In this document: positions 599 through 12,074 of the stretch, piece by piece | Numbering within the stretch: the stretch's first letter is position 1 | How the letters are laid out: the number at the start of each line of letters is the position of its first letter | Notes under the pieces: generated by a model | What the model saw: the letters and a program-made list of their open reading frames with translations, nothing else | What the model was told of the DNA's origin: nothing | Databases searched by the model: none | Translations under genes and position numbers: made by a program | NCBI GenBank assembly: GCA_944386755.1 | Contig: CALXCF010000003.1 | Span: forward strand, 41,442 to 105,441 | Direction: 5' to 3' | Source: an uncultured Clostridia bacterium | Lineage (GTDB): Bacteria > Bacillota > Clostridia > TANB77 > CAG-508 | Length of the DNA stretch: 64,000 nucleotides

Positions 599-3317
599 CT
601 TTTACAGTATTTATTTTAAATAACTTAAATAGTTCTACTATTATTAATGGCGCTATAATTAATCCAATTAATTCAACAATATTTTCTGTTGGTAATACTG
701 GTATACTAAATACATTTCTTAATGCTGGTACAAGTAATATTATTAACATTAAAGCTGCAGAACCAAGTGTTGCCCATATTAGCTTGCTATTGCCTTTTAT
801 TCCTGTTTTAAATATTGATAATTTATTATTTCTTATACTATATACATGCACTAGTTCTGAAAAAGCAAGTGTTACAAATGCCATTGTTTGTCCTACTTCA
901 ATTTTTGATTCATCTAATGTTAATCCATCTATTGGTGTAGTTGTTGTAGCTAATCCTATCATAAATGCTGCAAGTGTTAGTAATCCTATCATTACTCCTT
1001 GATAGATTACTCTCCATGTCATTCCTTTTGTAAATACTCCTTTTCCTGGTTTATTTGGTTTTCTATTCATTATGTCTTTATTTGCTGGGTCAAATGCTAA
1101 TGCTAATGCTGGTAAAGAGTCTGTTACTAGGTTTATCCATAATATGTGTATTGGTAATAAAATTTCTAAATGTGCTATATCTGTTATTCCAAACCAATTT
1201 GCAAATAATGGTGTACATAATGTTGCTAAAAATAATACTACAATTTCTCCAACGTTACTTGATAATAAAAATTGTATTACTTTTAAGATATTATCATAAA
1301 TACGTCTACCTTCTTCTACTGCTGATACTATTGTTGCAAAGTTGTCATCTGTTAATATCACATCTGCTGCTTCTTTTGCAACATCTGTTCCTACAATTCC
1401 CATTGCACATCCTATATCAGATGTTTTTAATGCTGGACTATCATTTACTCCATCACCTGTCATAGCAACTATTTCGCCATTTTTTTGCCATGCTTTTACT
1501 ATTCTTACTTTATGCTCTGGTGAAACTCTAGCATATACTGAATAATGTCTTACATTTTTCTCTAAATCTTCATCTGACATTTTTTCTAATTCTGTACCTG
1601 TTATTGCTTCATCTTCATTTTCTAATATTCCTAATTTTTTAGCTATTGCTGTTGCTGTAATTTTATGATCTCCTGTTATCATTACTGTTTTGATTCCTGC
1701 TGTTTTACATTTTTCTACTGCTTTTTTAGCTTCTTCTCTAGGGGGGTCAATCATTCCTACCATTCCAATAAATATTAAGTCATTTTCTATTGATTCCATT
1801 TCTTCTTTTGATGGTTCATGGTCTATTTCTTTATATGCTCCGGCAAGTACTCTTAAAGCTTCTTTTGCCATTATTTCATTATTTTCTCTTATTGTTTTTG
1901 TATAATTTTCTAAGTCTTGTTTTATTTCTCCATTTAAAAGATAGCTATTACATCTATTTAATAATTCATCTACTCCACCTTTTGTAAATACAACATATTT
2001 TCCATTTACTTTATTTACTGTTGTCATTAATTTTCTATCTGAATCGAATGGTATTTCCTCTACACGTGGCATTTGGTCATATATACTTGGGTCAAAGTCT
2101 AATCTAAATGCCATATCTACTAAAGCTGTTTCTGTTGGATCTCCTGTTAGTGTTCCATCTTTTGAAATTTTTGTATCATTACAAAACATATTTACATATA
2201 CTAATTTTTTAATATCTTCAGTGATATTGTTTTTATATTCCTCTAAATCTTTTGTTTCTGAATTTATAAAGATTTTTTCTACTGTCATTTTATTTTGTGT
2301 TAAAGTTCCTGTTTTATCTGAACAAATTACTGTTGCACTTCCTAAAGTTTCAACTGCTGGAAGTCTTTTTACAATTGCATTCCTTTTAACCATTTTTTGA
2401 ACACCAATTGCAAGTACTATTGTAGATACTGCAACTAGACCTTCTGGTATTGCTGCAACTGCAAGTGATACTGCTGTCATAAACATATGGATTGGTTCTT
2501 TTCCTTGTATTAAACCAACTATGAATATAAATACACAAATTACCAATGCTGCAATTCCTAATGTCTTTCCTAATTTATTTAATTTATCTTGAAGAGGTGT
2601 AGTTTGTTCATCTGCTTGATTTATCATTCCAGCTATTTTTCCAACTTCTGTTGTCATTCCTGTTTCAACTACTATTCCTTTTCCTCTACCATATGTTACT
2701 AAACTTGATGAAAATAACATATTTAGTCTATCTCCTAAACTTGTTTCTTCATCATCTATTTTTTCTGTTGTTTTTTCAACTGGTACTGATTCTCCTGTTA
2801 ATGATGCTTCTTGCGATTTTAAATTTACTGCTTCAATGATCCTTAAATCTGCTGGAATATAGTCTCCTGTATCTAAGACTACTATATCTCCTGGTACTAA
2901 TTCTTTTGCTGGAATTACTGTTACTTCTCCATTTCTAATTACTTTTGATGCATGGTCTGTTAGTTTTTGAAGTGCCTCTAATGATTTTTCGGCTTTTGCT
3001 TCTTGAGTTACTCCTATTATTGCATTTACTACAACAACTATTAATATTATTATTGTATCTGTTATTCCTTCTCCTTCTGCAACTCCAACTACTCCAGATA
3101 CTATTGCTGCAATAATTAATACAATTATTGAGAAGTCTTTAAATTGGTCTAAAAATTTTTGAAATAAACTTTTTTTCTTTTTTGATTTCAATTCATTTAG
3201 TCCATATTTTTCTCTTCTTTTTGCAACCTCCTCAGTTGTTAGTCCTTTTTCTAGATTTGTCTCTAGTTCTTTTTCTACTTCTTTAACATCCTTTTGAAAC
3301 CAATTGCTATTTTGCAA
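591..3317 (-). CDS. P-type Ca2+/Mn2+-transporting ATPase (P2 type)
   Basis: Membrane cation pump of about 908 residues, the usual length for SERCA/PMCA-like bacterial ATPases. Visible motifs are TGES (about 174-177, actuator), PEGL in M4 (291-294, ion site), DKTGTLT with the phosphorylated Asp (334-340), KGG (446-448, nucleotide binding), TGD (548-550) and GDGVND (621-626). Ten or so hydrophobic segments are spread in the usual 4+6 pattern. The start is TTG at 3315-3317, placed by AAGGAG ten bases upstream; the ATG a few bases upstream is out of frame and quickly stops. A yybP-ykoY-like leader precedes it, and pumps of this type under that riboswitch export Mn2+, so Mn2+ is a likely substrate beside Ca2+. 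The last two codons come from an inserted repeat. Confidence 0.9.
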   Translation of the reverse strand: MQNSNWFQKDVKEVEKELETNLEKGLTTEEVAKRREKYGLNELKSKKKKSLFQKFLDQFKDFSIIVLIIAAIVSGVVGVAEGEGITDTIIILIVVVVNAIIGVTQEAKAEKSLEALQKLTDHASKVIRNGEVTVIPAKELVPGDIVVLDTGDYIPADLRIIEAVNLKSQEASLTGESVPVEKTTEKIDDEETSLGDRLNMLFSSSLVTYGRGKGIVVETGMTTEVGKIAGMINQADEQTTPLQDKLNKLGKTLGIAALVICVFIFIVGLIQGKEPIHMFMTAVSLAVAAIPEGLVAVSTIVLAIGVQKMVKRNAIVKRLPAVETLGSATVICSDKTGTLTQNKMTVEKIFINSETKDLEEYKNNITEDIKKLVYVNMFCNDTKISKDGTLTGDPTETALVDMAFRLDFDPSIYDQMPRVEEIPFDSDRKLMTTVNKVNGKYVVFTKGGVDELLNRCNSYLLNGEIKQDLENYTKTIRENNEIMAKEALRVLAGAYKEIDHEPSKEEMESIENDLIFIGMVGMIDPPREEAKKAVEKCKTAGIKTVMITGDHKITATAIAKKLGILENEDEAITGTELEKMSDEDLEKNVRHYSVYARVSPEHKVRIVKAWQKNGEIVAMTGDGVNDSPALKTSDIGCAMGIVGTDVAKEAADVILTDDNFATIVSAVEEGRRIYDNILKVIQFLLSSNVGEIVVLFLATLCTPLFANWFGITDIAHLEILLPIHILWINLVTDSLPALALAFDPANKDIMNRKPNKPGKGVFTKGMTWRVIYQGVMIGLLTLAAFMIGLATTTTPIDGLTLDESKIEVGQTMAFVTLAFSELVHVYSIRNNKLSIFKTGIKGNSKLIWATLGSAALMLIILLVPALRNVFSIPVLPTENIVELIGLIIAPLIIVELFKLFKINTVKGD

Positions 3318-3375
3318 TTTTCATCAACTCCTTATTTATATATTGTATATTTTAAACAATTTTGTAAATAATATT

Positions 3376-3530
3376 ATAAAAATATAAAAGAGACTTTTAA
3401 AAGGTTGTACAAATTTTGATTTGTGTCTCCTTTTAAAAGTCTCGCTTACTATTTATTTTAGCTTACTAACCAGATACTTTTTGAATATCGCGTCTGTTGA
3501 TTAGTAATTTTAAGCTACTCCCTTTTAATT
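3376..3530 (-). promoter_or_regulatory. yybP-ykoY-like (Mn2+) riboswitch with terminator
   Basis: The minus strand carries AAAAGGGAGTAGC (3514-3526), then ATCAACAGACGCGA, a TTACTAA/TTAGTAA hairpin and GCGAGACTTTT (from 3445). These match the remembered conserved blocks of the yybP-ykoY family. GAGACTTTTAAAAGG (3429-3443) can instead pair with CCTTTTAAAAGTCTC (3390-3404) in a perfect 15-bp stem followed by TTTTATATTTTT, an intrinsic terminator. The two folds exclude each other, as expected for transcriptional control that turns the ATPase gene on when Mn2+ binds. The assignment is from memory of the consensus and no covariance search was run. Confidence 0.75.
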
Positions 3531-3547
3531 CTATTTCATACTATATT

Positions 3548-3558
3548 TGGTGACCCCT
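3548..3558 (-). repeat. Distal att-like repeat (tRNA-Glu 3' end copy)
   Basis: The 11-mer TGGTGACCCCT is identical to the end of tRNA-Glu at 12000-12010. The flanking bases differ and no other tRNA part is present, so it is a repeat rather than a tRNA remnant. It lies just upstream of the ATPase riboswitch. Confidence 0.55.
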
Positions 3559-3733
3559 GCCATATCATAACCTCTACAACACCTGAAATCACTATGTTTT
3601 CATTTCTTATTGAGAGTTAATATGTAAGGTTTTAATTTATACTTTATTAATTCCTTTTAATCTTTCTTACTATTTTTTACAATTATAACATTCTATTTTA
3701 AAAATCAATAATGATATACTATTAATTTGCAAA

Positions 3734-4054
3734 TTAAGCTACTTTTATCCCCGTATTCATAACTTCTTGAACAAAAGGATTTGAAGCACTTATATAATCC
3801 TCTGTTGATATTGGGTGTGGCTCTATTCGTGTATCTATCTTCCAAGTTAAACCTATTAGCTTTGCACCATCTTCAATAATATCATTAAAATCACTTGAAA
3901 CAATTGCTATATCTATATCACTCTCTTCATTTTCTGTTCCTTTTGCATAAGAACCAAACAATATAATTGCCTCTATCTTATAATATTGACTTATCTTTTC
4001 TATATATTTTTGTATAGATTCCATTATTGATTTTTCAATAAACTTTTTAGCCAT
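3734..4054 (-). CDS. mntA: MNT-type minimal nucleotidyltransferase (antitoxin of HEPN/MNT pair)
   Basis: A 106-residue protein with the nucleotidyltransferase signature GSYAKG (residues 34-39) followed by SDIDI (metal-binding Asp at about 46 and 48) and a later IDTRIEP segment. In HEPN/MNT modules the MNT protein neutralises the HEPN RNase, in studied cases by adding AMP to it. The gene overlaps the end of the HEPN gene by 31 bases and has its own GAGGAGG ribosome binding site, a typical two-gene toxin-antitoxin layout. It lies at the left end of the mobile island, where it may help retain the island. Confidence 0.85.
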   Translation of the reverse strand: MAKKFIEKSIMESIQKYIEKISQYYKIEAIILFGSYAKGTENEESDIDIAIVSSDFNDIIEDGAKLIGLTWKIDTRIEPHPISTEDYISASNPFVQEVMNTGIKVA

Positions 4055-4425
4055 ATTCTAACCTCCTCAATATTTTTTATTTGCATAGCAGTATATTCAT
4101 CAGTACATTTTTTGTTGAAACTCTCTTTATAATCATCATATCTTGCACTTATATTAAACTGTGTAATTATTTGTAATTTTTCAACTTGCTCATCTGTTAA
4201 ATCTAAATTGCATTTTTCGGCAAGAGCTAATAAGTTATGAGATTTCATTGTATATGGATTTTCTTTATTGTTTTTTGCATATAACCCTTTTAATAACTTC
4301 TCTACTACCAAATGACCAAAAAATAAACTGTAACTATTTTTTTTACCTTTATATAAATATTTCATTACATTATAATCTTCTTCACTACTATTTATCCAAT
4401 ATTCCATTAAATTAATATTATCCAT
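4024..4425 (-). CDS. hepT: HEPN domain protein (toxin of HEPN/MNT pair)
   Basis: A 133-residue all-helical protein with the HEPN pattern: SSEEDYNVMKYLYKGKKNSYSLFFGHLVVEKLLKG near the N-terminus and ISARYDDY near residue 95. HEPN proteins paired with MNT partners are RNases or inactive relatives. The classic R-x4-6-H active site is not obvious here; Arg-Tyr at about 96-97 is the best conserved part, so activity is uncertain. It is the first gene of the pair, with GGTAGGTGG before the ATG. Family confidence is good because of the fused context with the nucleotidyltransferase. Confidence 0.8.
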   Translation of the reverse strand: MDNINLMEYWINSSEEDYNVMKYLYKGKKNSYSLFFGHLVVEKLLKGLYAKNNKENPYTMKSHNLLALAEKCNLDLTDEQVEKLQIITQFNISARYDDYKESFNKKCTDEYTAMQIKNIEEVRIWLKSLLKNQ

Positions 4426-4536
4426 TTATACCACCTACCTCTATAAAAGTTATCATTATTATAGCATTATTTATAATAATTTACTATAAAATTATAAAAA
4501 TTTTCAGAGAAATTTTATAAAATATTAAATTTTCTT

Positions 4537-4575
4537 AACCTTAATCACTATCATCAATTAGGAGTGATTAAGGTT
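4537..4575. terminator. 13-bp perfect stem-loop upstream of the HEPN gene
   Basis: AACCTTAATCACT (4537-4549) pairs perfectly with AGTGATTAAGGTT (4563-4575) over a 13-nt loop, followed by TTTTATATAA on the plus strand. It could be a terminator or a cruciform. No gene reads into it from the left, so the role is unclear. Confidence 0.4.
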
Positions 4576-4600
4576 TTATATAAAATACATCTATTAATAA

Positions 4601-4665
4601 TTATTAATATTTTCTAATATTTTTAATTATTTTATAAAAATTATTAATATTTCTAAATATTTTTT
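4601..4665. repeat. Two AT-rich direct repeats
   Basis: TTATTAATATTTTCTAATAT (4601-4620) recurs 40 bases on as TTATTAATATTTCTAAATAT (4641-4660), both followed by a T run. They lie between the HEPN promoter region and the oriT-like hairpins. They could be remnants of iterons or protein sites of the mobilisable element, or just AT-rich drift. Confidence 0.35.
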
Positions 4666-4701
4666 GCTAATTTTTACATTAATTAGTTTACAAAAATAGT
4701 C

Positions 4702-4770
4702 ATAGGGCTTTGCCCTATCAAACAGAACACTTTCGCATGAAAGTGTTCTAATATGTTATAACACTTAAAC
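4702..4770 (+). other. oriT-like hairpin region upstream of the MobV relic
   Basis: Three dyads lie in 70 bases: ATAGGGC/GCCCTAT (4702-4718, 3-nt loop), AGAACACTTTC/GAAAGTGTTCT (4724-4749, 4-nt loop) and AGTGTT/AACACT across the last arm to about 4765. A relaxase gene of the MobV type starts 40 bases downstream. MobV origins of transfer are small inverted repeats just upstream of mob, so an oriT or its remnant is a reasonable reading. Inference from position and structure only. Confidence 0.5.
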
Positions 4771-4808
4771 ATTTTCAAAAAAAATAAATTATTAGGAGGT
4801 ATTTAATC

Positions 4809-5288
4809 ATGAGTTATGCAATTATAATAAATACTAACTATAAAATGAAAAACTTACCTGGTATATATAGACATAATGAAAGAAAAAATACTAATTATTC
4901 TAATAAAGATATTAACAAAAGTAAGTCAAAAGAAAACTATTCGATAAAATCTCCTTCTACTACTTATACTAAACTATTTCAATTAATTAAAGAAAAATAC
5001 AATTTAAAAGGACAAATTAAATCTGTAAGTAATGTCGCTTGTGAATATATAATTACATCTGATAAGGATTTTTTTGATAATATTGGCATAGAAGAAACAA
5101 AAAGATTTTTTAAGTCTGCATATTCTTTTGTCTGTAATTAGAAGCAAGAAAACTTATCTTTAAGAAAAAGAATAACAAAACTTAAAAATTATATAAAAAA
5201 TATATTTCACATTTTGCAAACCTGTTTTAATATTCCTAAAAAAACTTTTCTAAATCTTTTATCTAATCATGAAAAATATATTAAATAA
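4809..5288 (+). pseudogene. MobV (Mob_Pre) relaxase, internally deleted and with in-frame stop
   Basis: The first 45 residues match the MobV start (MSYAI..., then N-x-Y-S-N-K-D-I-N and ENYSIK). Residues 75-110 match a segment further on (ACEYIITSDKDFFDNIG, then KRFFKSAYSF). The part between and the HxH metal site of the relaxase are missing. After a TAG at 5139-5141 the same frame stays open for 48 codons, reading KQENLSLRKRITKLKNYIKN and on, like the coiled-coil C-terminus of MobV proteins. So an N-terminal and a C-terminal piece survive with an internal deletion and an amber codon. A good ribosome binding site (AGGAGG) remains. It marks the island as derived from a mobilisable plasmid or element. 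Confidence 0.7.
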
Positions 5289-5392
5289 TAAATACAATTT
5301 ATATATATGTTTATTTTCGACAATATAGTATTGCCTTTTACTATGTGATTTTATTATAGAATAATATAAAATTTATTAGGAGTTTATGTGTT

Positions 5393-5650
5393 ATGAGTGG
5401 TAGTAAAAAGTTAAATAATAAATCAAATGTAATTTCTGAAAATTTTAAAAGATTTAGACAAGAAAGTGGATATTCACAAAGCAAATTATGTGAAAAATTA
5501 GAATTAATGGGACTACAATTATATAAAGCTGATATTTATTCAATAGAACATAATAAACGCTCTGTAAAAGATTTTGAACTATTAGCTTTTTCTATTGTAT
5601 TTAATAAACCTCTTACAGAATTTTTCAAAGGTGTTAAAGATTTTGAATAA
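5393..5650 (+). CDS. Small XRE-family HTH regulator 1
   Basis: An 85-residue protein with one HTH_XRE domain: NFKRFRQESGYSQSKLCEKLELMGLQ forms helices 1-3 and SIEHNKRSVKDFELLAFSIV the C-terminal half. It closely resembles XRE regulator 2 at 10.2 kb, sharing the pattern S-V-K-D-F-E-L-x-A. The two genes bracket the DGR genes. AGGAG lies ten bases before the ATG and a stem-loop terminator follows at 5691. A role as local repressor of the DGR or island genes is inference. Confidence 0.8.
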   Translation: MSGSKKLNNKSNVISENFKRFRQESGYSQSKLCEKLELMGLQLYKADIYSIEHNKRSVKDFELLAFSIVFNKPLTEFFKGVKDFE

Positions 5651-5690
5651 TGATAAGAAAAATATATTATAAAAACTGAAACTATTTATT

Positions 5691-5735
5691 TGAATGTAGT
5701 TAATACAAAATTAGCTACATTCATTTTTTATTTTT
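5691..5735 (+). terminator. Terminator after XRE regulator 1
   Basis: TGAATGTAG (5691-5699) pairs with CTACATTCA (5715-5723) and is followed by TTTTTTATTTTT. The loop holds the stop codon of the convergent gene at 5711. Confidence 0.65.
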
Positions 5736-6028
5736 AAACCATCTATTACCCCTATTTTATATGCAATATATTTTTCTTCTTCTACATATATATTTTTTGC
5801 CTTTTCTAATTTTTTATCAATACTTTTCTTACATAAACTTAAAGATAAAAAACTTTTACCTTTCTCCATATTTTCAAGATATTTTAAATAAACTTTCTTT
5901 CTATTTTTTATATCTAATTTAATATCTTCTAATTTATTATACTTATCTAAAATATCTAATATATCAATAAATTGAGCTATCATAAAAATTTCATTATCAT
6001 TTAATTCTTTTTTAATATTATTATCCAT
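5711..6028 (-). CDS. Hypothetical helical protein in the DGR island
   Basis: I do not recognise this 105-residue protein. It is Lys/Glu/Ile-rich, predicted all-helical, with the middle segment LDILDKYNKLEDIKLDIKN and a cluster SFLSLSLCKKS. The start is set at ATG 6026-6028, because the in-frame TTG at 6043 overlaps the GGAG site that serves this ATG. It is divergent from the MutS-like/RT operon and shares its promoter region. Position suggests an accessory or regulatory part of the DGR. It is not clearly Avd, since another gene fits Avd better. Confidence 0.55.
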   Translation of the reverse strand: MDNNIKKELNDNEIFMIAQFIDILDILDKYNKLEDIKLDIKNRKKVYLKYLENMEKGKSFLSLSLCKKSIDKKLEKAKNIYVEEEKYIAYKIGVIDGLKIKNECS

Positions 6029-6079
6029 TTTCTTCAACTCCAACTTTTTTTATAAATTTTATCATTTTTATAATATTTT

Positions 6080-6111
6080 GGCAAGACTTTCTTGCCGTTT
6101 TATGTTATAAT
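6080..6111 (+). promoter_or_regulatory. Operator-like dyad and -10 box before the MutS-like/RT operon
   Basis: GGCAAGA-CTT-TCTTGCC (6080-6096) is a 7-bp dyad in otherwise AT-rich DNA, and TATAAT follows at 6106-6111. A repressor bound to the dyad would cover the region where the -35 element should be. Candidate binding site for one of the two XRE proteins (inference). Confidence 0.45.
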
Positions 6112-6156
6112 ATTTTTGAAAATTTAATTTTTAATATTACTATTGGAGGTTTTAAG

Positions 6157-6576
6157 TTGAGTAAATTATATAATACATATCTTGAATTAAAGAAACAAGA
6201 TGAAGAAATAATATATTTATTTAAAAGTGGTATATTTTTTATTGCACTTGATAATGATGCTTATACTTTATCTAAATTTTTTCATTTTAAAATAGCAAAT
6301 TTAACTGATAATGTTGTAAAATGTGGATTTCCTTGTGCTAGTTTTAATAAATATTCTAAATTATTTTTATTACATCATTTAAAAATAAAAATAATAGAAC
6401 TAGATAATAAAGTTGTATATCAATTTAAAGACTATGTACTAAATATAAAAATAACAGAACTATTAAATGATATAAAATCTATCGATATCAACACATTATC
6501 TATTCAAGAAGCCTATCAGTTTATAGAAAATCTAAAAAACAAAGTAAATAAAATTAATAATGAGGATATTATCTAA
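6157..6576 (+). CDS. MutS domain I-like (MSL) DGR accessory protein 1
   Basis: A 139-residue protein resembling the N-terminal mismatch-recognition domain of MutS: YLFKSGIFFIALDNDAYTLS corresponds to MutS FYRMGDFYELFxDDA, and VVKCGFPCASFNKY to the MAGIPYHAVxxY segment. The Phe-x-Glu DNA-reading motif is replaced by F-F-I. No other MutS domain is present. The start is TTG 6157, with GGAGG seven bases upstream. The stop overlaps the start of the reverse transcriptase by one base (TAATG), so the two are translationally coupled. MutS-like accessory genes have been described beside some DGRs; the function is unknown. Confidence 0.7.
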   Translation: MSKLYNTYLELKKQDEEIIYLFKSGIFFIALDNDAYTLSKFFHFKIANLTDNVVKCGFPCASFNKYSKLFLLHHLKIKIIELDNKVVYQFKDYVLNIKITELLNDIKSIDINTLSIQEAYQFIENLKNKVNKINNEDII

Positions 6577-7529
6577 TGAAAAGAAAAGGATATTTATATC
6601 AAAATTTGTACAAATTTGAAAATATACAAAATGCTTTTAATGAAGTATGTAAAAATACAAAAAACAAGAAAAAAGTTGCTAGATTTAAGGAATATAAATG
6701 TATATATATTTCAAGAATATATAACATATTACAAACAAAAACATATAAACCTGGTCCATATAATGTATTTACAATATATGAACCAAAGAAAAGAAGAATT
6801 GTAAGCCAAAACATGCAAGATAAAGTTATAAATCATTTAGTGGCAAGACATATACTTTATCCTGCACTTCTTCCTTGTCTTTTAGATGTAAATGTTGCAA
6901 GTAGAAAAGGATTAGGTACAAGTAAAGGCATTAGATTAACCATGAATTTTCATAGAATTTGTAAAGTAAAATATAAAACTTACTATATATTAAAATGTGA
7001 TATTAGTAAATTCTTTGCAAGTATAAATCATGATATTTTAAAAGAAAAATTAAGAAAAAGAATTAAAGATAAAGATGCTTTAAAAATTGTTTTTGATATT
7101 ATTGATATTGAAGAAAATGGACTTTCAATTGGTGCAATGACAAGTCAAATCCTTGCCATATTTTATTTAAATGACACGGATCACTTTATTAAAGAAACAT
7201 TGAAAATTAAATACTTTTTAAGGTATCAAGATGATTTTTTGCTGTTTCATCCTTCAAAACAATATTTAAAATATTGTTTAAATGAACTAGAAAAGTTTTT
7301 AGAAAAGGAAAAATTAACATTAAACAAAAAGACTAGAATTTACAAAAGTACAAATAAATTTATCTTTCTAGGTAGAAAACCTAATGGGAATTATGCTAAA
7401 TTTAGAGATGTTAGAAGAAAGATTAAAAAGAGAATTTATTTATACAGAACAGGACAAATACAGCTCTCTGGTCTTATTAGCTCTATTATATGTTATAAAC
7501 ACTTATGTAAAAAAGGTAGTAACTACTAA
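6576..7529 (+). CDS. DGR-type reverse transcriptase
   Basis: A 317-residue reverse transcriptase that makes adenine-mutagenised cDNA from the template repeat. Motifs: PKKRRIVSQNMQDKVINH (about 70-87), the ILKCDISKFFASI block with catalytic Asp 142, IGAMTSQ (185-191) and YQDD (217-220). The I-G-x-x-x-S-Q form instead of Q-G-x-x-x-S-P is the hallmark of DGR reverse transcriptases and separates them from group II intron enzymes. No maturase or endonuclease domain follows. The template repeat lies 180 bases downstream on the opposite strand. The gene ends inside a small GGTAGTAA/TTACTACC hairpin (7515-7542). All catalytic Asp residues are present, so the enzyme looks intact. Confidence 0.93.
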   Translation: MKRKGYLYQNLYKFENIQNAFNEVCKNTKNKKKVARFKEYKCIYISRIYNILQTKTYKPGPYNVFTIYEPKKRRIVSQNMQDKVINHLVARHILYPALLPCLLDVNVASRKGLGTSKGIRLTMNFHRICKVKYKTYYILKCDISKFFASINHDILKEKLRKRIKDKDALKIVFDIIDIEENGLSIGAMTSQILAIFYLNDTDHFIKETLKIKYFLRYQDDFLLFHPSKQYLKYCLNELEKFLEKEKLTLNKKTRIYKSTNKFIFLGRKPNGNYAKFRDVRRKIKKRIYLYRTGQIQLSGLISSIICYKHLCKKGSNY

Positions 7530-7708
7530 TCTAATTACTACCTTAAAAATAGTTATAAAATATACTCCCTTTCGAATACTAATACCTACTAACAAATATA
7601 TTTATCTATTTTTACTTTATACTTAAAAATTTTAAGTAATGGACATAGTTTGTTTCTATATTATCTCTTATACAATCATTAATTGTATAACCACAGTGTA
7701 TAGAAGCT

Positions 7709-7865
7709 ACTGGGCGAAAACCATTCGTATTACTGTTGTTGTTCGTGTTACCGTTAGAATTGACATTGCACAAGTTGTTGTTGTTCAAGTTACCAGAAGT
7801 GTTAACATTGCGTACATTGAAATTACTGTTGTTAGAGTTAGAGTTGACATTACGAGAGGCTAACC
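7709..7865 (-). repeat. DGR template repeat (TR)
   Basis: 157 bp that align without gaps to the variable repeat at 8796-8952. The 24 differences all fall at T on the plus strand, that is A in the transcript read on the minus strand. Read in the frame of the target gene the TR is full of AAY (Asn) codons, giving LASRNVNSNSNNSNFNV and so on up to GFRPV. The last 25 bases at the 7841-7865 end and the first 15 at 7709-7723 are identical to VR; the latter (TGGTTTTCGCCCAGT) is the expected initiation of mutagenic homology. It starts 19 bases after the avd stop codon and is antisense to the end of the RT region. Confidence 0.95.
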
Positions 7866-7884
7866 TTTAACAACTATGCCCTTT

Positions 7885-8229
7885 TTATTTTATACTTTTT
7901 ATCCAACCATTTGTATACTTGATTATATCTTCAATTCTATTGCCTAATTTAATATATTTTTTATTATTTATTATCATCTTGTCATAACATAAATTTAGTA
8001 AAAAATCTAAAATCTTAATCTTTGCAATTACTTTTTCTAAAAGTCCTTTTTTGTTTTCTACATTACTTGTAGTATTTGCTTCATAACATAATTCTAATAA
8101 ATCATAACTATTAGTTCTTATCCTATTTTTTAATTCTATATCTTTTTTTGAAAAATTACTTAATTCTTTATCTATTGCAATTATTAAATTTCTAATAAAA
8201 TTAATTACTTGGAACTTTTCTTCTTTCAT
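7885..8229 (-). CDS. avd: Avd-like DGR accessory protein
   Basis: A 114-residue, four-helix-type basic protein: KFQVINFIRNLIIAIDKELS, then a helix with RTNSYDLLELCYEANTT, then NKKGLLEKVIAKIKILDFLL and a last helix. This fits Avd, the four-helix bundle (S23-like family) that forms a pentamer and binds the RT and template RNA. It overlaps the upstream MutS-like gene by 29 bases and is followed directly by the template repeat, which is the usual avd-TR order. Family assignment rests on size, helical pattern and position; sequence similarity to Avd is low by eye. Confidence 0.7.
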   Translation of the reverse strand: MKEEKFQVINFIRNLIIAIDKELSNFSKKDIELKNRIRTNSYDLLELCYEANTTSNVENKKGLLEKVIAKIKILDFLLNLCYDKMIINNKKYIKLGNRIEDIIKYTNGWIKSIK

Positions 8230-8656
8230 TTATTATTTCTTCCATTTTACTTATTATTTCTTTAAAACTTTCATTTCCGATATTCTCTATTAAAAAATTA
8301 TTTATTTTATCTATTCTTATTTTACAATTTATATATTTTCTAGCTTTCTCAAAATATTTAGAATATGTATTTAAGTTCTTATTATCATATATTTCTTCTA
8401 CTTCATAATTATTTCTTCTATCTAATATTAAATAATTTATTTTATTATCTTCTAATTTTGCAATTACTTTATTTATACTACTTTCTGGAAATCCACACAT
8501 ATGTACCTCTTCTACTTTTTTTAATTTGTATTCAAATAAATATGAAACTATATATGCATCTTTTCCATAAACCTGGTAAAACTTTCCTATTTTTACAAAA
8601 ACTATTTCTTCCTTATGTACTTGTTTTACTACTTCTATTACATTTTTTATTCCCAT
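8201..8656 (-). CDS. MutS domain I-like (MSL) DGR accessory protein 2
   Basis: A 151-residue protein with a clearer MutS domain I: FVKIGKFYQVYGKDAYIVSY matches the MutS block around GDFYELF, and VHMCGFPESSINKVIAKL matches MAGIPYHAVENYLAKL. The Phe-x-Glu motif reads F-Y-Q. It is a paralogue of the 6157-6576 gene. The start is ATG 8654-8656, five bases after AAAGGAG; the upstream in-frame GTG at 8674 would overlap that site. It sits between the variable target gene and avd in one minus-strand operon. Possible role in handling mismatched cDNA/DNA hybrids, which is inference. Confidence 0.75.
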   Translation of the reverse strand: MGIKNVIEVVKQVHKEEIVFVKIGKFYQVYGKDAYIVSYLFEYKLKKVEEVHMCGFPESSINKVIAKLEDNKINYLILDRRNNYEVEEIYDNKNLNTYSKYFEKARKYINCKIRIDKINNFLIENIGNESFKEIISKMEEIINERRKVPSN

Positions 8657-8678
8657 TCTATCTCCTTTTTCCACAGCC

Positions 8679-8710
8679 TGCTCGGGAAGACACTAAGCCT
8701 TCCACGAGCA
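8679..8710 (-). other. Stem-loop between the DGR target gene and the MutS-like gene
   Basis: TGCTCG-GGAAG (8679-8689) pairs with CTTCC-A-CGAGCA (8699-8710), eleven pairs with one bulge and a 9-nt loop. It is GC-rich against an AT-rich background. It lies about 90 bases past the VR end, further than the VR-proximal hairpins known to aid target recognition in DGRs. It may be a partial terminator or an RNA processing site. Confidence 0.5.
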
Positions 8711-8722
8711 CTTTCTATTATT

Positions 8723-9907
8723 CTACTCTATTACATATGGATTTTCACTATTTCCATCTCCACTGCTGATTACGACATCAGATGTTAGAAGAAAAACTGG
8801 GCGAAAACCATACGCAAAACTGTAGTAGTCCGCGTAACCGTCAGAACTGACATCGCACAAGGAGTTGCCGTTCAAGCTACCAGAAGTGCCAACATTGCGC
8901 ACACTGAAATAACTGTAGTAAGAGTTAGAGTTGACATTACGAGAGGCTAACCATGTGTATCCTGATGTTGCATTTAATCCTAAAGCTTTTAGTTGATCTA
9001 CATCTTCTTTATAATTTGTATCTGCTACTTTAAATTTTCCATTCCAGCTATATGTTTCTAAATAATCATATGTTCCCGTATACATACCAGAAGTATCTTC
9101 TTGAAATTTTCCGTTTTCTAATGTTGCTATACTTCCTAAGCTCCTTGCATCTTTTGCTATTCCTTTTTCATCCATGTATTCGCTTGCTCTTTCATTTAAA
9201 TTGTTTACCACATTATTATATGATGTTGCTGCTTTTTTGAAATTATCACTTAATGTTAAACTTCCGTCATAAAAAAAGTCGTTTACTGTTACTTTGTCAT
9301 CTCCATATCCTAATGTTACACTTGGAACTACTCCATTATCTGCTGTTATTATTTGTAATCCGTGTGTTTCGTCATTATAAAGCACTCTACAAAGCATATT
9401 ATTATACATTACATATGGGCTTTTATCTTTTGCTTCCTCTCCATCTGGATTTACTTTTAATACTTCTCCTGCTGTTTTTGATGTTTCTTCTCCACTTAAA
9501 CTTGTTATATATAATTCTTCATATGATACTTCATATCCACTTGGTGTTGTTATACCTGTTTCTGTAAAACCTTTGTAATATTTATTTTCATTGTTTTGAT
9601 TTGCTGCTTCTAATATTTCTTGGACTTTTTCTGGTGTATTTACTGTTGAATCTTCTCCATTTTCTAATTTTTCTGCTATCCAATTCGCTATATCTAATTG
9701 TGCTTGTTCTTTTACTGATGCTTTTTCTGTTTGTTCTTTTGCATCATTTGCTCTTGTTAATATTCCATTCTCACCTGTTAATGTTGCAATACTTACTCCT
9801 GCTAATATCAAAAGGACAATAATTGTAATGACAAGGGCTATTAATGTTATTCCTCCTTCTTCCTTTCTCCTTTGTTTTAATGGTGTTTTTTCTCTTTGTT
9901 TTTCCAT
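8723..9907 (-). CDS. DGR variable target: prepilin-like surface protein with C-terminal variable domain
   Basis: A 394-residue protein diversified by the DGR. Residues 1-17 are basic; the prepilin motif EEGG is followed by ITLIALVITIIVLLILAGV, a type IV prepilin N-terminus with cleavage expected after Gly19. The usual Glu5 of the mature pilin is absent. A helical linker with KEQTEKASVKEQAQLDIANW follows, then a large extracellular region. The variable repeat covers residues of about 319-371 (LASRNVNSNSYYSYFSVRNV to GFRPV), with Tyr, Ser, Gly, Asp and Ala where the TR encodes Asn. The GFRPV end is typical for C-type-lectin-fold DGR targets. Good ribosome binding site (AAAGGAGG). Likely exposed on a pilus or pseudopilus (inference). 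Confidence 0.9.
   Translation of the reverse strand: MEKQREKTPLKQRRKEEGGITLIALVITIIVLLILAGVSIATLTGENGILTRANDAKEQTEKASVKEQAQLDIANWIAEKLENGEDSTVNTPEKVQEILEAANQNNENKYYKGFTETGITTPSGYEVSYEELYITSLSGEETSKTAGEVLKVNPDGEEAKDKSPYVMYNNMLCRVLYNDETHGLQIITADNGVVPSVTLGYGDDKVTVNDFFYDGSLTLSDNFKKAATSYNNVVNNLNERASEYMDEKGIAKDARSLGSIATLENGKFQEDTSGMYTGTYDYLETYSWNGKFKVADTNYKEDVDQLKALGLNATSGYTWLASRNVNSNSYYSYFSVRNVGTSGSLNGNSLCDVSSDGYADYYSFAYGFRPVFLLTSDVVISSGDGNSENPYVIE
8766..8781 (-). other. Small hairpin just past the VR
   Basis: CTGAT (8766-8770) and ATCAG (8777-8781) form a 5-bp stem with a 6-nt loop, 14 bases beyond the 3' end of the VR. DGRs often need a short hairpin near this position for target recognition. 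The stem is short, so this is only a candidate. Confidence 0.35.
8796..8952 (-). repeat. DGR variable repeat (VR)
   Basis: 157-bp copy of the template repeat at 7709-7865 inside the 3' end of the target gene. Compared with TR, 24 adenines (minus strand) are changed: 13 to G, 10 to T, 1 to C. There are no changes at G, C or T. Most fall in the first or second position of AAY codons, so nearly every change alters an amino acid. This is direct evidence of past adenine-specific mutagenic retrohoming. Confidence 0.95.
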
Positions 9908-10124
9908 TAATTTGTTCCTCCTTTGTTTTTATTACTTACTTTTCTATTTTATGTATTTTGTTTATACATACTTTACTATTTTATATCATATTACTTCATA
10001 TTTTTTCAATACTTTTTATATTTTTTATTCATTTTTATTCTTTTTTTTACTTATTTATATGTTCTTTATTATATTTCTCAGAAAATTTAGTTTTATTCAT
10101 TGTTTTAATTGTTTTTAAGTTTGC

Positions 10125-10171
10125 GTGTATTGTTTGTACACATTGTAGCATAAAAATTATTATAAAATCAA
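10125..10171 (-). promoter_or_regulatory. Promoter and dyad upstream of the DGR target gene
   Basis: On the minus strand TTGATT (10166-10171) and TACAAT (10142-10147) are 18 bases apart. The dyad GTGTA-N7-TACAC (10125-10141) follows directly over the expected start site. The leader to the gene start at 9907 would be about 230 nt and is very U-rich. The dyad is a candidate operator. Nothing else is evident in the 9908-10242 gap. Confidence 0.45.
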
Positions 10172-10242
10172 TAAAAATTGTAAAATTTTTTTATTTTATT
10201 TTTTCATAATTGATTTTTTGTTGATTTTTGGAGGTTTTCTGT

Positions 10243-10488
10243 ATGAAAAAATTTAATGATAACCGTAATGTTATTGGTAATTTAATTAAAGAATATAGAG
10301 AGAAAAAACACTATTCTAAAATGGAATTATCTCGTAAATTAGAATTATTAGGTATTGAACTTGATAGATTTGAATTATATAAAATTGAAACTTGTAAAAA
10401 AAGTGTTAAAGATTTTGAATTAATTGCTTTATGTGTTGTTTTAGATATTGATTTTGATGAATTAAAAAAATTAATTGAAAATTATTAA
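10243..10488 (+). CDS. Small XRE-family HTH regulator 2
   Basis: An 81-residue HTH_XRE protein: NLIKEYREKKHYSKMELSRKLELLGIE, then YKIETCKKSVKDFELIALCVV. It is a paralogue of the regulator at 5393-5650. The start is ATG 10243, eight bases after GGAGG at 10230-10234; an in-frame TTG at 10228 overlaps that site and is rejected. It is divergent from the DGR target gene and their promoter regions face each other. A hairpin terminator follows immediately. Likely an autoregulator that may also control the target gene (inference). Confidence 0.8.
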   Translation: MKKFNDNRNVIGNLIKEYREKKHYSKMELSRKLELLGIELDRFELYKIETCKKSVKDFELIALCVVLDIDFDELKKLIENY

Positions 10489-10522
10489 ATCACACATTTT
10501 TTTGATGTGTGATTTATTTTTT
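10488..10522 (+). terminator. Terminator of XRE regulator 2
   Basis: AATCACACAT (10488-10497) pairs perfectly with ATGTGTGATT (10505-10514) and is followed by TTATTTTTTT. Confidence 0.85.
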
Positions 10523-10619
10523 TATCTACTTTTTCCCTTAAAGGTTTTATATGTTTTATTTCTTCTTATAGGGAAATTTCTGGAATATATAGCATAGCTG
10601 TATTCCTAAATTTAATTAG

Positions 10620-10656
10620 CTACTACCAGATAGTAATTTGGTAGTAGTTATTTTTT
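10620..10656 (+). terminator. Second stem-loop in the XRE2-integrase gap
   Basis: CTACTACCA (10620-10628) pairs with TGGTAGTAG (10639-10647), followed by TTATTTTTTA. The rest of the 10523-10908 gap is AT-rich, with no gene seen. Confidence 0.55.
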
Positions 10657-10908
10657 ATTATAGTTATATCTAACTGTGTTTCATATAAATCAACAAATAT
10701 ATGAATTTTGATTAATTCTCTTAAATTTTGTTAATTATTTCAAAAATTCATTTCTAATTTGTTTCATCTTATGAGATTTTTACTATCTTTTAGTTTATCT
10801 CTCTGCCTTTTTTATTTTTTGTCTCATTTAGTGATACACTATATCTTTTTGACCTTGTTTTTGTAACATGCTAACATATTATTAACAAATTGAATTGGAG
10901 GAATTAAA

Positions 10909-11766
10909 ATGTTAGAAAAAAATACTATTAATTCAAACACTACAAAAGAAATAGATATATTTTTAGATTGTACTTTTTCTAAATTGGGTTTAAATTATGC
11001 TAATTTAGGTATCAAATATTTAAAAGAAGTTATAAAGATTGCATATTTTAATAATTCAAATGACTTAAAATACAAAGAATTATGTGATATAGCAAGTAAA
11101 TCATTAAATATATCTATTACAAATCTTACAAGTAATATTTATAACTCTATAAACTCTATAAATGTTAATCTTGCTAAAAGAAATTTTAAAGATATTTTTA
11201 ATATTGATTTTGATTATTTTTATATATCACCAGCTTTAACATATAATGATATTGATTTAAAAAACCAAAGAATACATATAAACAAAACATTAACTAAGAA
11301 TAAGGAAAATAAAACTATAATGGGTAATTCTACTAAAACATATGCAGGTATAAGAGAAGTCCCTGTTCCTAACTCTTTATATCCCCATTTAGTAGAACAA
11401 ATGAGAATATCAAGGGAATTTAAAAATAATCCCGAAAAACTTTTATTTAAATCTAATAAAAATAACTATATAGAAACCCAAGATGTTAATCGAGCTTTAA
11501 AATTAGTATTAAAATATAATTGGGGTATTAATGATATTACAACTCATAATCTGCGTCATACATATGGAACACGCTGTATTGAAGCTGGAATGCAACCTGT
11601 TGTATTACAAAGGTTGCTTGGACATACAGATATTAGCACTACTCTTAATACATATACAGATGTATTAAGTGAATTTAAAAAAGAAGAAATTGAAAAATTA
11701 AATGATTATTATTTACAGAAAGATTTATTACCTGAGAAAAATAATTCTGATGAAATGCAAAGATAA
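10909..11766 (+). CDS. Tyrosine recombinase-like protein with Spo0A-C-like N-terminus
   Basis: A 285-residue protein. Residues of about 110-255 are a tyrosine recombinase catalytic domain: TYNDIDL, GIREVPVP, then H213-N-L-R216-H-T-Y-G, LLGHTDIS with His239, and the nucleophile Tyr249. Box I (usually G-L-R-x-x-E), with the first catalytic Arg, is missing: the match begins exactly after it. Residues 17-100 instead resemble the DNA-binding C-terminal domain of Spo0A: FSKLGLNYANLGIKYLKEVI, then IASKSLNISITNLTSNIYNS. The chimera should not be a normal integrase; it may be a decayed or repurposed one. It lies next to tRNA-Glu with a GGAGG site before the ATG. The Spo0A-like call is by eye. Confidence 0.7.
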   Translation: MLEKNTINSNTTKEIDIFLDCTFSKLGLNYANLGIKYLKEVIKIAYFNNSNDLKYKELCDIASKSLNISITNLTSNIYNSINSINVNLAKRNFKDIFNIDFDYFYISPALTYNDIDLKNQRIHINKTLTKNKENKTIMGNSTKTYAGIREVPVPNSLYPHLVEQMRISREFKNNPEKLLFKSNKNNYIETQDVNRALKLVLKYNWGINDITTHNLRHTYGTRCIEAGMQPVVLQRLLGHTDISTTLNTYTDVLSEFKKEEIEKLNDYYLQKDLLPEKNNSDEMQR

Positions 11767-11778
11767 CTCAAAAATCAA

Positions 11779-11850
11779 AATTGGGAGTAATTTTGTAAAA
11801 ACGTTGGGAGTGATTGGGAGTGATTTTTTAAAATGTTGGGAGTTTATATG
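11779..11850 (+). repeat. TTGGGAGT short repeats between integrase and tRNA
   Basis: TTGGGAGT occurs four times, at about 11781, 11804, 11813 and 11835, the middle two in tandem as TTGGGAGTGATTGGGAGTGATT. Repeats of this size beside an integrase gene and its tRNA target resemble arm-type integrase sites. The function is inference. Confidence 0.45.
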
Positions 11851-11967
11851 CGAGTAAATACTGAAAAATGATAAAAAATATTGAGAATTATTAAAAAATG
11901 CTAAAAAATATCATCCTCTAACCCCCTCTACTTTTCAGTATTTCTCAGCATCTTTCAAAAATTTAAA

Positions 11968-11998
11968 AAATCAGTAAATTTCAAAAATTCACTGATTT
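11968..11998 (-). terminator. Terminator of tRNA-Glu
   Basis: On the minus strand AAATCAGT (11991-11998) pairs with ACTGATTT (11968-11975), followed by a T run. It starts right after the CCA end of the tRNA. If the island was inserted at this tRNA, this terminator came with the element. Confidence 0.7.
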
Positions 11999-11999
11999 A

Positions 12000-12074
12000 T
12001 GGTGACCCCTACGGGAATCGAACCCATGATTCCACCTTGAGAGGGTGGCGTCTTAACCGCTTGACCAAGGGGCC
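12000..12074 (-). tRNA. tRNA-Glu (CTC)
   Basis: The minus strand gives a full cloverleaf: acceptor GGCCCCT/AGGGGTC (one G-U), D arm with GGTCAAGCGGTTAAGAC, anticodon stem CCACC/GGTGG with loop CTCTCAA, and the T arm GGGTTCGATTCCC. The anticodon CTC reads GAG. CCA is encoded at 12000-12002. It lies 3 bases from the stop of the Mini-III gene on the same strand. It is the apparent insertion site of the island. Confidence 0.95.

What the first reader, a model, noticed from the sequence alone, without database searches (positions are those of the whole stretch)
5393..10488. Complete DGR with proof of adenine mutagenesis in one genome
Reverse transcriptase with IGxxxSQ and YQDD, Avd-like gene, TR and VR are all present. 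TR (7709-7865) and VR (8796-8952) align gap-free over 157 bp with 24 differences, every one at an adenine of the TR strand (13 A to G, 10 A to T, 1 A to C). This cannot be explained by random drift and shows the system has worked since its last TR copy. The target is a cell-surface protein.
Basis: partly seen in the sequence, partly recalled or inferred. Interest (0 to 1): 0.9.

Follow-up and report, generated by a model that had tools for sequence, protein, structure and literature searches.

The report
Inverted gene-diversifying retroelement with duplicated MutS-like gene
A bacterium, probably from an animal gut, carries what looks like a natural hypermutation machine that rewrites part of a pilin-like protein; its reverse transcriptase gene points the opposite way from its template, and this orientation has changed more than once among relatives.

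Summary
TR 7709-7865 and VR 8796-8952 (read on the - strand) align gap-free over 157 bp with 24 differences, all at TR adenines. RT, Avd, TR and VR form a complete DGR. A cross-genome test agrees: two relatives with near-identical TRs have VRs differing at 29 of 47 TR-A columns and 1 of 99 others.

(1) RT is on the + strand; TR, Avd and target are on the - strand: an inverted DGR. Of 37 loci of this RT lineage 24 are inverted, 7 co-directional, 6 undetermined; orientation needs 3 changes on the RT tree, at least 2 forced. In L068 only the RT gene is flipped between syntenic neighbours. (2) A covariation-supported ~160-nt RNA follows the TR in both orientations, with a terminator-like site in 23 of 29 loci; it is a divergent relative of Rfam RT-14. 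(3) Two stand-alone MutS domain-I proteins (MSL); the one beside the RT is a distinct paralogue. (4) The target has a prepilin-type N-terminus. (5) The 1.59-Mb genome holds three more complete DGRs.

A new variant of a known kind.

The parts
6576..7529 (+). DGR reverse transcriptase, 317 aa, IGAMTSQ and YQDD
   Evidence: Pfam RVT_1 7e-18; PHROG 1423 3e-77; PDB 8ub7 1.8e-23; motifs
6157..6576 (+). MSLa: stand-alone MutS domain I protein, 139 aa, directly upstream of and overlapping the RT gene
   Evidence: Pfam MutS_I 7e-11; one of 16 RT-side MSLs that form one clade, support 100/99
7545..7707 (-). Structured RNA 3' of the TR (P1 7705-7699/7660-7654, P2 about 7690-7681/7677-7668, P3 about 7638-7631/7627-7620, P4 about 7614-7545)
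   Evidence: Alignment A1 and pair counts; model R1 152 bits (the window is one of the 24 rows the model was built from)
7513..7544 (-). Terminator-like site of the TR transcript, at the 3' end of the RT gene
   Evidence: Terminator scan; 23 of 29 loci have such a site after the RNA
7709..7865 (-). Template repeat (TR), 157 bp, 54 A, 23 AAY codons of 51
7885..8229 (-). Avd, 114 aa
   Evidence: PHROG 3206 4e-18; bAvd 4e-8, below cut-off; DivGenRetAVD 6e-11, below cut-off
8201..8674 (-). MSLb: stand-alone MutS domain I protein, 157 aa, between target and Avd
   Evidence: Pfam MutS_I 9e-12; model pLDDT 89, the 50 PDB matches at E 0.001 or better are all MutS-family
8723..9907 (-). Target: 394-aa protein with prepilin-type N-terminus; VR near its C-terminus
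   Evidence: Alignment; pilin matches in PDB, weak, best 0.015
8796..8952 (-). Variable repeat (VR)
5393..5650 (+). Small HTH protein upstream of the MSLa-RT genes
   Evidence: HTH_3 0.0025, below cut-off; kept in some relatives
10228..10488 (+). Small HTH protein, divergent from the target gene; it matches the relatives' copies of the first HTH at about 40% identity
   Evidence: HTH_3 0.004, below cut-off; kept in some relatives
5711..6043 (-). 110-aa protein of unknown function kept beside MSLa in some relatives

Best explanation
A working, or very recently working, diversity-generating retroelement with the inverted layout. The TR is transcribed leftward, most simply at the end of the target-MSLb-Avd transcript, and ends in a structured RNA and its own terminator. 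RT is made rightward from a separate MSLa-RT transcript. RT and Avd bind the structured RNA, copy the TR with errors at adenines, and the cDNA replaces the VR near the C-terminus of a pilin-like protein. Shown: the parts, the adenine-specific differences here and between two relatives, the covarying RNA, terminator-like signals, and repeated changes of RT orientation. Inferred: that RNA, RT and Avd act together; the transcripts; that a self-contained, terminated TR RNA is what lets RT orientation change; that the two MSL proteins bind the mismatched cDNA:VR duplex and shield it from the host MutS; that the target sits on the cell surface.
For: 24 of 24 differences at TR adenines. 27 loci of the RT lineage with a detected pair: 542 of 586 differences at TR adenines (the detection required at least 75% at one base). 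Cross-genome VR test 29/47 against 1/99. RT nearer to a DGR RT than to group II RTs among solved structures, SQ motif. Inverted in 24 and co-directional in 7 of 37 lineage loci, 6 undetermined; RT alone inverted between window and L068. RNA: 95.7% of cells paired against 45-53% when slid, 124 doubly changed cells against 27.6 shuffled and 13-29 slid. Terminator-like site after the RNA in 23 of 29, controls 25 of 580 and 12 of 580. MSL: MutS Phe position F in 50 of 50 readable rows, Glu position E in 1 of 50; host MutS has GDFYE and a frame of 885 aa.
Against: No reads, strain series or RNA data: present activity, transcript ends and RT-RNA binding are untested. In 9 of the 27 loci the RT is broken, split or partial although TR and VR still differ mostly at A, so the pattern can outlive the enzyme. 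RT-less relics exist. Avd is below two curated cut-offs. The best NCBIfam profile of the RT is group II RT/maturase, though at 89 of 300 bits. By my criterion 6 of 29 loci lack the terminator, among them L068, the very locus with the flipped RT, and L080: 5 of 7 co-directional and 18 of 22 inverted loci have it, so insulation is not universal. The window RNA scores only 17.7 bits against RT-14. The C-type lectin fold of the target was not recovered. The MSL role rests on residues and fold alone, and deleting E. coli mutS did not change BPP-1 DGR repair frequency in one published assay (passage of PMC12875486; that reporter was an 18-nt insertion, not substitutions).
Confidence: 0.85

Rival explanations
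1. A dead DGR: the TR/VR differences record past activity and the locus no longer diversifies.
For: 9 of 27 lineage loci have broken, split or partial RT yet retain an A-biased TR/VR pair; RT-less relics exist.
Against: In the window the RT, Avd, both MSL and target frames are open, RT motifs are intact, and there are 0 non-adenine differences of 24, whereas the relics L091, L092 and L094 carry 18, 35 and 13 in gapped alignments that include some flank (the gap-free core of L091 has 3 of 17).
Confidence: 0.12
2. Two separate elements placed tail to tail: an RT of another use (MSLa-RT) beside a DGR target module that is served by one of the three other DGR RTs of the genome.
For: RT and TR are on opposite strands with separate upstream genes; the genome has three other DGR RTs.
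Against: The layout recurs in 24 loci. The same RT lineage lies co-directionally behind the same RNA in 7 loci. The other three DGRs have their own TRs; those of L009 and L010 carry RT-14 RNAs, and model R1 matches none of L008-L010 at E up to 1.
Confidence: 0.05
3. TR/VR divergence by ordinary drift or gene conversion between duplicated sequences.
For: The two copies are in one locus.
Against: 24 of 24 at 54 of 157 positions, P 1e-13; 29/47 against 1/99 between genomes.
Confidence: 0.005

Closest known systems
BPP-1 DGR of Bordetella phage (Brt, Avd, TR, Mtd)
   Same: RT with SQ motif, Avd, TR next to the avd gene (record annotation), structured RNA 3' of the TR (BPP-1: Rfam RF03022 at that place), VR near the target's C-terminus.
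   Different: RT on the other strand; two MSL proteins; pilin-like target; YQDD in place of YMDD; the window RNA is not matched by RF03022.
'Inverted' DGRs, group 4 of Schillinger et al. 2012 (PMC3521204, section 15 read) and the G5 pattern of PMC6642488 (section 10 read)
   Same: RT on one strand; TR, VR and target on the other.
   Different: Those authors had three cases (Shewanella, Vibrio, Photobacterium) with clustered RTs and suggested a one-time event. Here orientation changes 3 times, at least 2 forced, within one RT lineage, with an RT-only flip.
MSL accessory protein of DGRs (PF01624; named in PMC10053308, passages seen)
   Same: Stand-alone MutS domain I beside DGR genes.
   Different: RT-side and Avd-side copies together in 14 of 37 lineage loci, the RT-side copy a separate clade; Glu lost with invariant Phe. 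Whether this was described before I could not check: the main survey was not held.
Rfam RF02921 RT-14 RNA
   Same: Same general order of helices; found 3' of the TR in two other DGRs of this genome; relative L068 scores 47.4 of 48.1 needed.
   Different: Window RNA scores 17.7 bits; model R1 does not match L008-L010 at E up to 1.

Membership tests
Diversity-generating retroelement | RT of the DGR branch with [ILV]GxxxSQ motif | tested here: met
   IGAMTSQ; 8ub7 1.8e-23 against group II 6ar1 1.4e-11. Against: best NCBIfam profile is group II, far below its cut-off. The 13-row tree has one group II RT on a long branch, so it is weak on its own.
Diversity-generating retroelement | TR/VR pair with adenine-specific differences | tested here: met
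   24 of 24; 29/47 against 1/99 across genomes
Diversity-generating retroelement | Avd or other accessory protein | tested here: met
   PHROG Avd 4e-18, though below Pfam and NCBIfam cut-offs; MutS_I twice, above cut-off
Diversity-generating retroelement | VR in a C-type-lectin-fold domain of the target | tested here: inconclusive
   Model pLDDT 46, VR domain not modelled; no Pfam hit over a cut-off.
Diversity-generating retroelement | IMH / IMH* at the 3' ends of VR and TR | tested here: inconclusive
   In several relatives TR ends like GTAGCTTCTATA and VR like GTAGTTTCTCTA; in the window the match stops at CGCCCAGT.
Diversity-generating retroelement | VR diversification in living cells | not testable with these tools
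   No reads or strains
Inverted DGR | RT on the strand opposite to TR, VR and target | tested here: met
Inverted DGR | RT clusters with the Shewanella/Vibrio/Photobacterium inverted DGR RTs | not tested
   Those sequences were not fetched
Rfam RT-14 | Score at or above 48.1 bits | tested here: not met
   17.7 bits
MutS | Domains II-V with ATPase | tested here: not met
   139 and 157 aa, of the MutS domains only domain I is matched
Group II intron RT | QG..G-type motif (recalled) and intron RNA around the gene | tested here: not met
   No such motif in the window RT; no Rfam match in 4000-12000 up to E 5

The most novel reading that the evidence does not exclude
The template of this DGR lineage is a discrete, self-terminated guide RNA: TR plus covarying 3' module plus terminator. 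It is insulated from the RT gene, so the RT gene flips freely in evolution. A second, RT-linked MutS domain I paralogue that keeps the mismatch Phe but lost the Glu works as a dedicated shield against host mismatch repair, so that adenine mismatches in the cDNA:VR duplex survive.
Probability: 0.3. Interest if true: 0.7.

Novelty: new variant of a known kind. Interest (0 to 1): 0.5.

Why it matters
DGRs are natural systems for targeted protein diversity. This lineage separates the template RNA from the enzyme gene, repeatedly, which helps to mark out the RNA that is needed. It would also make a question testable that is open to my knowledge: how DGR mutations escape host mismatch repair, with a conserved MutS-like protein whose key residues point to a mechanism. 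Four DGRs in a 1.6-Mb genome, with pilin-like target frames in at least three, suggest heavy investment in changing surface contacts.

Tried and rejected
Viral origin: one scan of viral contigs with the RT found no relative by tblastn, and the matches in 133 phage records are all under 60% identical, so a phage-borne element is not supported. More VRs in trans: in the own genome the TR matches only itself and the one VR; the other four hits are 15-23 bp. Programmed inversion of the RT: no long, near-perfect inverted repeats at the borders of the RT in the window or L068, only short A+T-rich ones. Target fold: the AlphaFold model is poor, so no fold search was made with it. RT-less target-VR/TR/RNA loci as active satellites: L091, L092, L094 are A-biased but carry 18, 35 and 13 non-A differences, and no RT of the lineage was found in G190 or G012 at 1e-30 (G190 has only RT fragments nearer to the L008 and L009 types; G012 has one 436-aa RT, not classified); I read them as decaying relics. 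Complete novelty of the RNA: withdrawn, because a relative scores 47.4 bits against RT-14. Module exchange between RT side and target side was noted but not tested by trees.

Dropped before counts: 5 duplicate loci, a C-biased repeat pair in L045 that is not TR/VR, two RT fragments under 180 aa, L046 from the RNA alignment (my pattern missed it; it and L054 have the RNA), 5 of the 29 rows from model R1, one truncated MSL row. Of the lineage matches I fetched 20 regions, not all.

Papers: PMC3521204 passages and section 15; PMC6642488 passages and section 10; PMC10053308, PMC10907252 and PMC12875486 passages only; PMC8144416 a term search without hits; all others search listings only. Searches, in an open-access library that lacks key DGR papers (the 2018 NAR survey was not held); I therefore claim no absence from print. 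The identity of 8ub7 as BPP-1 Brt and the roles of MutS Phe36/Glu38 are recalled; calls show only matching length, the aligned motif (E 0.09) and PDB titles of E38 mutants.
Full report
What is there. The window (64 kb of contig C3 of a 1.59-Mb, 41-contig genome) holds a complete DGR at 6157-9907. TR 7709-7865 and VR 8796-8952, read on the - strand, differ at 24 of 157 positions, all at TR adenines (24 of 54 A, 0 of 103 others). TR codons are rich in AAY (23 of 51). The VR lies near the C-terminus of a 394-aa protein; the TR starts 19 nt after the avd stop codon.

Gene content. Pfam finds RVT_1 (6576-7529 +), MutS_I twice above cut-off (6157-6576 + and 8201-8674 -) and a sub-threshold bAvd (7885-8229 -). 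PHROGs names the last 'Avd protein of DGR' at 4e-18. The RT's best solved relative is 8ub7, 1.8e-23, ahead of group II RT 6ar1 at 1.4e-11; it has IGAMTSQ and YQDD, against IGSLTSQ and YMDD in BPP-1 Brt. Against this, the best NCBIfam profile is group II RT/maturase (89 bits, far below its cut-off of 300); that library showed no DGR RT profile among the hits.

Layout. RT and MSLa are on the + strand; target, MSLb, Avd and TR on the - strand. This is the 'inverted' DGR of Schillinger et al. 2012 (section 15). The other three RTs of the genome lie in complete co-directional DGRs: TR/VR differences at A are 23 of 24 (L008), 22 of 26 (L009), 15 of 15 (L010); L008 shows no MSL.

Relatives. The RT was searched in 194 genomes of the genus: 99 have a match at 1e-30 or better; in 30 the best listed match is 50% identical or more, in the rest 31-41%, probably other DGR RTs but not each checked. 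21 loci came from genome contigs and none from viral contigs. After removing 5 duplicates I examined 40 loci, 3 of which are the other DGRs of the own genome. Of the 37 in the RT lineage, RT and TR (or Avd where no TR was called) are on opposite strands in 24, on the same strand in 7, undetermined in 6. On a tree of 38 RTs (two short fragments dropped, broken ones represented by their longest fragment, 12 of 35 inner branches unresolved) orientation needs 3 changes within the lineage; starred branches force at least 2 when outgroups are counted. Between the window and L068 the RT matches in one orientation while both flanks match in the other: the RT gene alone is flipped. L104 shows the L068 order of TR, RT and MSL with a broken RT. 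No inverted repeats at the RT borders suggest a programmed switch.

Mutation pattern in relatives. An A-biased TR/VR pair was found in 27 of 37 lineage loci (some of the other 10 are cut by contig ends): 542 of 586 differences at TR adenines. The finder kept only pairs with at least 75% of differences at one base, so this total is not an unbiased estimate. TRs of all pairs of loci were compared; one pair was over 95% identical, L069 and L070 from two genomes. Their VRs differ at 29 of 47 TR-A columns and 1 of 99 others (Fisher P 3.5e-17). Nine of the 27 loci have a broken, split or partial RT by my reading of the frames (182 of 202 at A) against 360 of 384 for the 18 intact ones.

Template RNA. 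Directly 3' of the TR, 29 loci (22 inverted, 7 co-directional; picked by a sequence pattern; L046 and L054 have it too) share a structured RNA. On alignment A1, 95.7% of cells pair (slid controls 45-53%), 28 of 45 pairs have a change on both sides, 124 doubly changed cells against 27.6 in shuffles and 13-29 when slid; helix 1 is the weakest at 88.7%, with one such pair of 7. A single-sequence fold of the window RNA has z -2.5, 2 of 200 shuffles folding as well. A terminator-like hairpin follows in 23 of 29: 18 of 22 inverted, 5 of 7 co-directional; it is missing by this criterion in L068 and L080 among others (controls 25 of 580 and 12 of 580). In the window it lies at 7544-7513, at the RT's 3' end. 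A wide Rfam scan found nothing; a narrow one gives RT-14 at 17.7 bits, while relative L068 reaches 47.4 of 48.1 bits. So it is a divergent relative of RT-14, which sits 3' of the TR in L009 and L010; the BPP-1 counterpart is RF03022. A covariance model built from 24 of the rows finds the RNA in 36 of 194 genomes.

MSL proteins. The predicted structure of MSLb is confident (pLDDT 89); the 50 matches at E 0.001 or better are all MutS-family. The phmmer alignment, weak by itself (E 0.09), puts 'GKFYQ' on the MutS 'GDFYE' position; the host MutS has GDFYE. Across 51 MSLs the Phe is kept in 50 of 50 readable rows and Glu in 1 of 50. The 16 RT-side MSLs form one clade, support 100/99; 14 loci have both copies. 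The host has a MutS frame of 885 aa and a second MutS_V protein of 827 aa. I infer that MSL binds mismatches without licensing repair; this is untested.

Target. The N-terminus GGITLIALVITIIVLLILAGVSIATL is prepilin-like; the PDB profile search gives geopilin 0.015 and MshA 0.1, weak but pointing the same way. The model shows one long N-terminal helix (residues 13-82) and leaves the variable domain unresolved.

Verdict. A real DGR, very probably functional until recently. As a DGR it is a known kind; the labile RT orientation, the orientation-independent TR RNA and the second MSL make it a new variant.

Noticed in passing
L111 (G052:C41) 3253-8231, - strand: Template array: eight tandem TR units (about 187 nt, spaced 496-728 bp, differing from each other also at non-A positions) with seven RT-14 matches, all below Rfam's cut-off, beside one VR; MSL, Avd and RT on the other strand. 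Where all eight TRs agree the VR differs at 14 of 32 A and 11 of 104 other columns, flank included. L113 (G191) has two such units.
   Followed up: partly
L049 about 2179-4800: A group II intron (RF02004 and RF00029, sense strand, 462-aa ORF) interrupts the DGR RT gene at or near the codons of YQDD: a retroelement inside a retroelement.
   Followed up: partly
L091, L092, L094: Target-VR followed by TR and RNA with no RT, Avd or MSL found in the stretch: A-biased but decaying RT-less relics or satellites.
   Followed up: partly
L099 8001-8346, - strand: Orphan TR-like sequence plus RNA with no target found beside it, in a genome (G153) that has the RT elsewhere (L068).
   Followed up: no
L054 4093-5233, - strand: Target reading frame runs into the RNA, with no Avd or MSLb found: looks like a deletion by recombination between VR and TR.
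   Followed up: no
window 4809-5141 and 10909-11766: Short MobV relaxase-like frame (110 aa; about 314 aa in L042) and a tyrosine recombinase with a weak, sub-threshold Spo0A-C-like N-terminus flank the DGR, hinting at a mobile element.
   Followed up: no
window 4692-10568 against L042: RT, MSLa, both HTH and Mob are 86-96% identical, but Avd 66%, MSLb 55% and target 31%: the target side diverges or is exchanged apart from the RT side.
   Followed up: partly
G000 contigs C4, C6, C15 (L010, L008, L009): Three more complete DGRs in a 1.59-Mb genome; the L008 and L009 target frames carry a pilin-like N-terminal stretch, that of L010 was not seen in the frame listed.
   Followed up: yes
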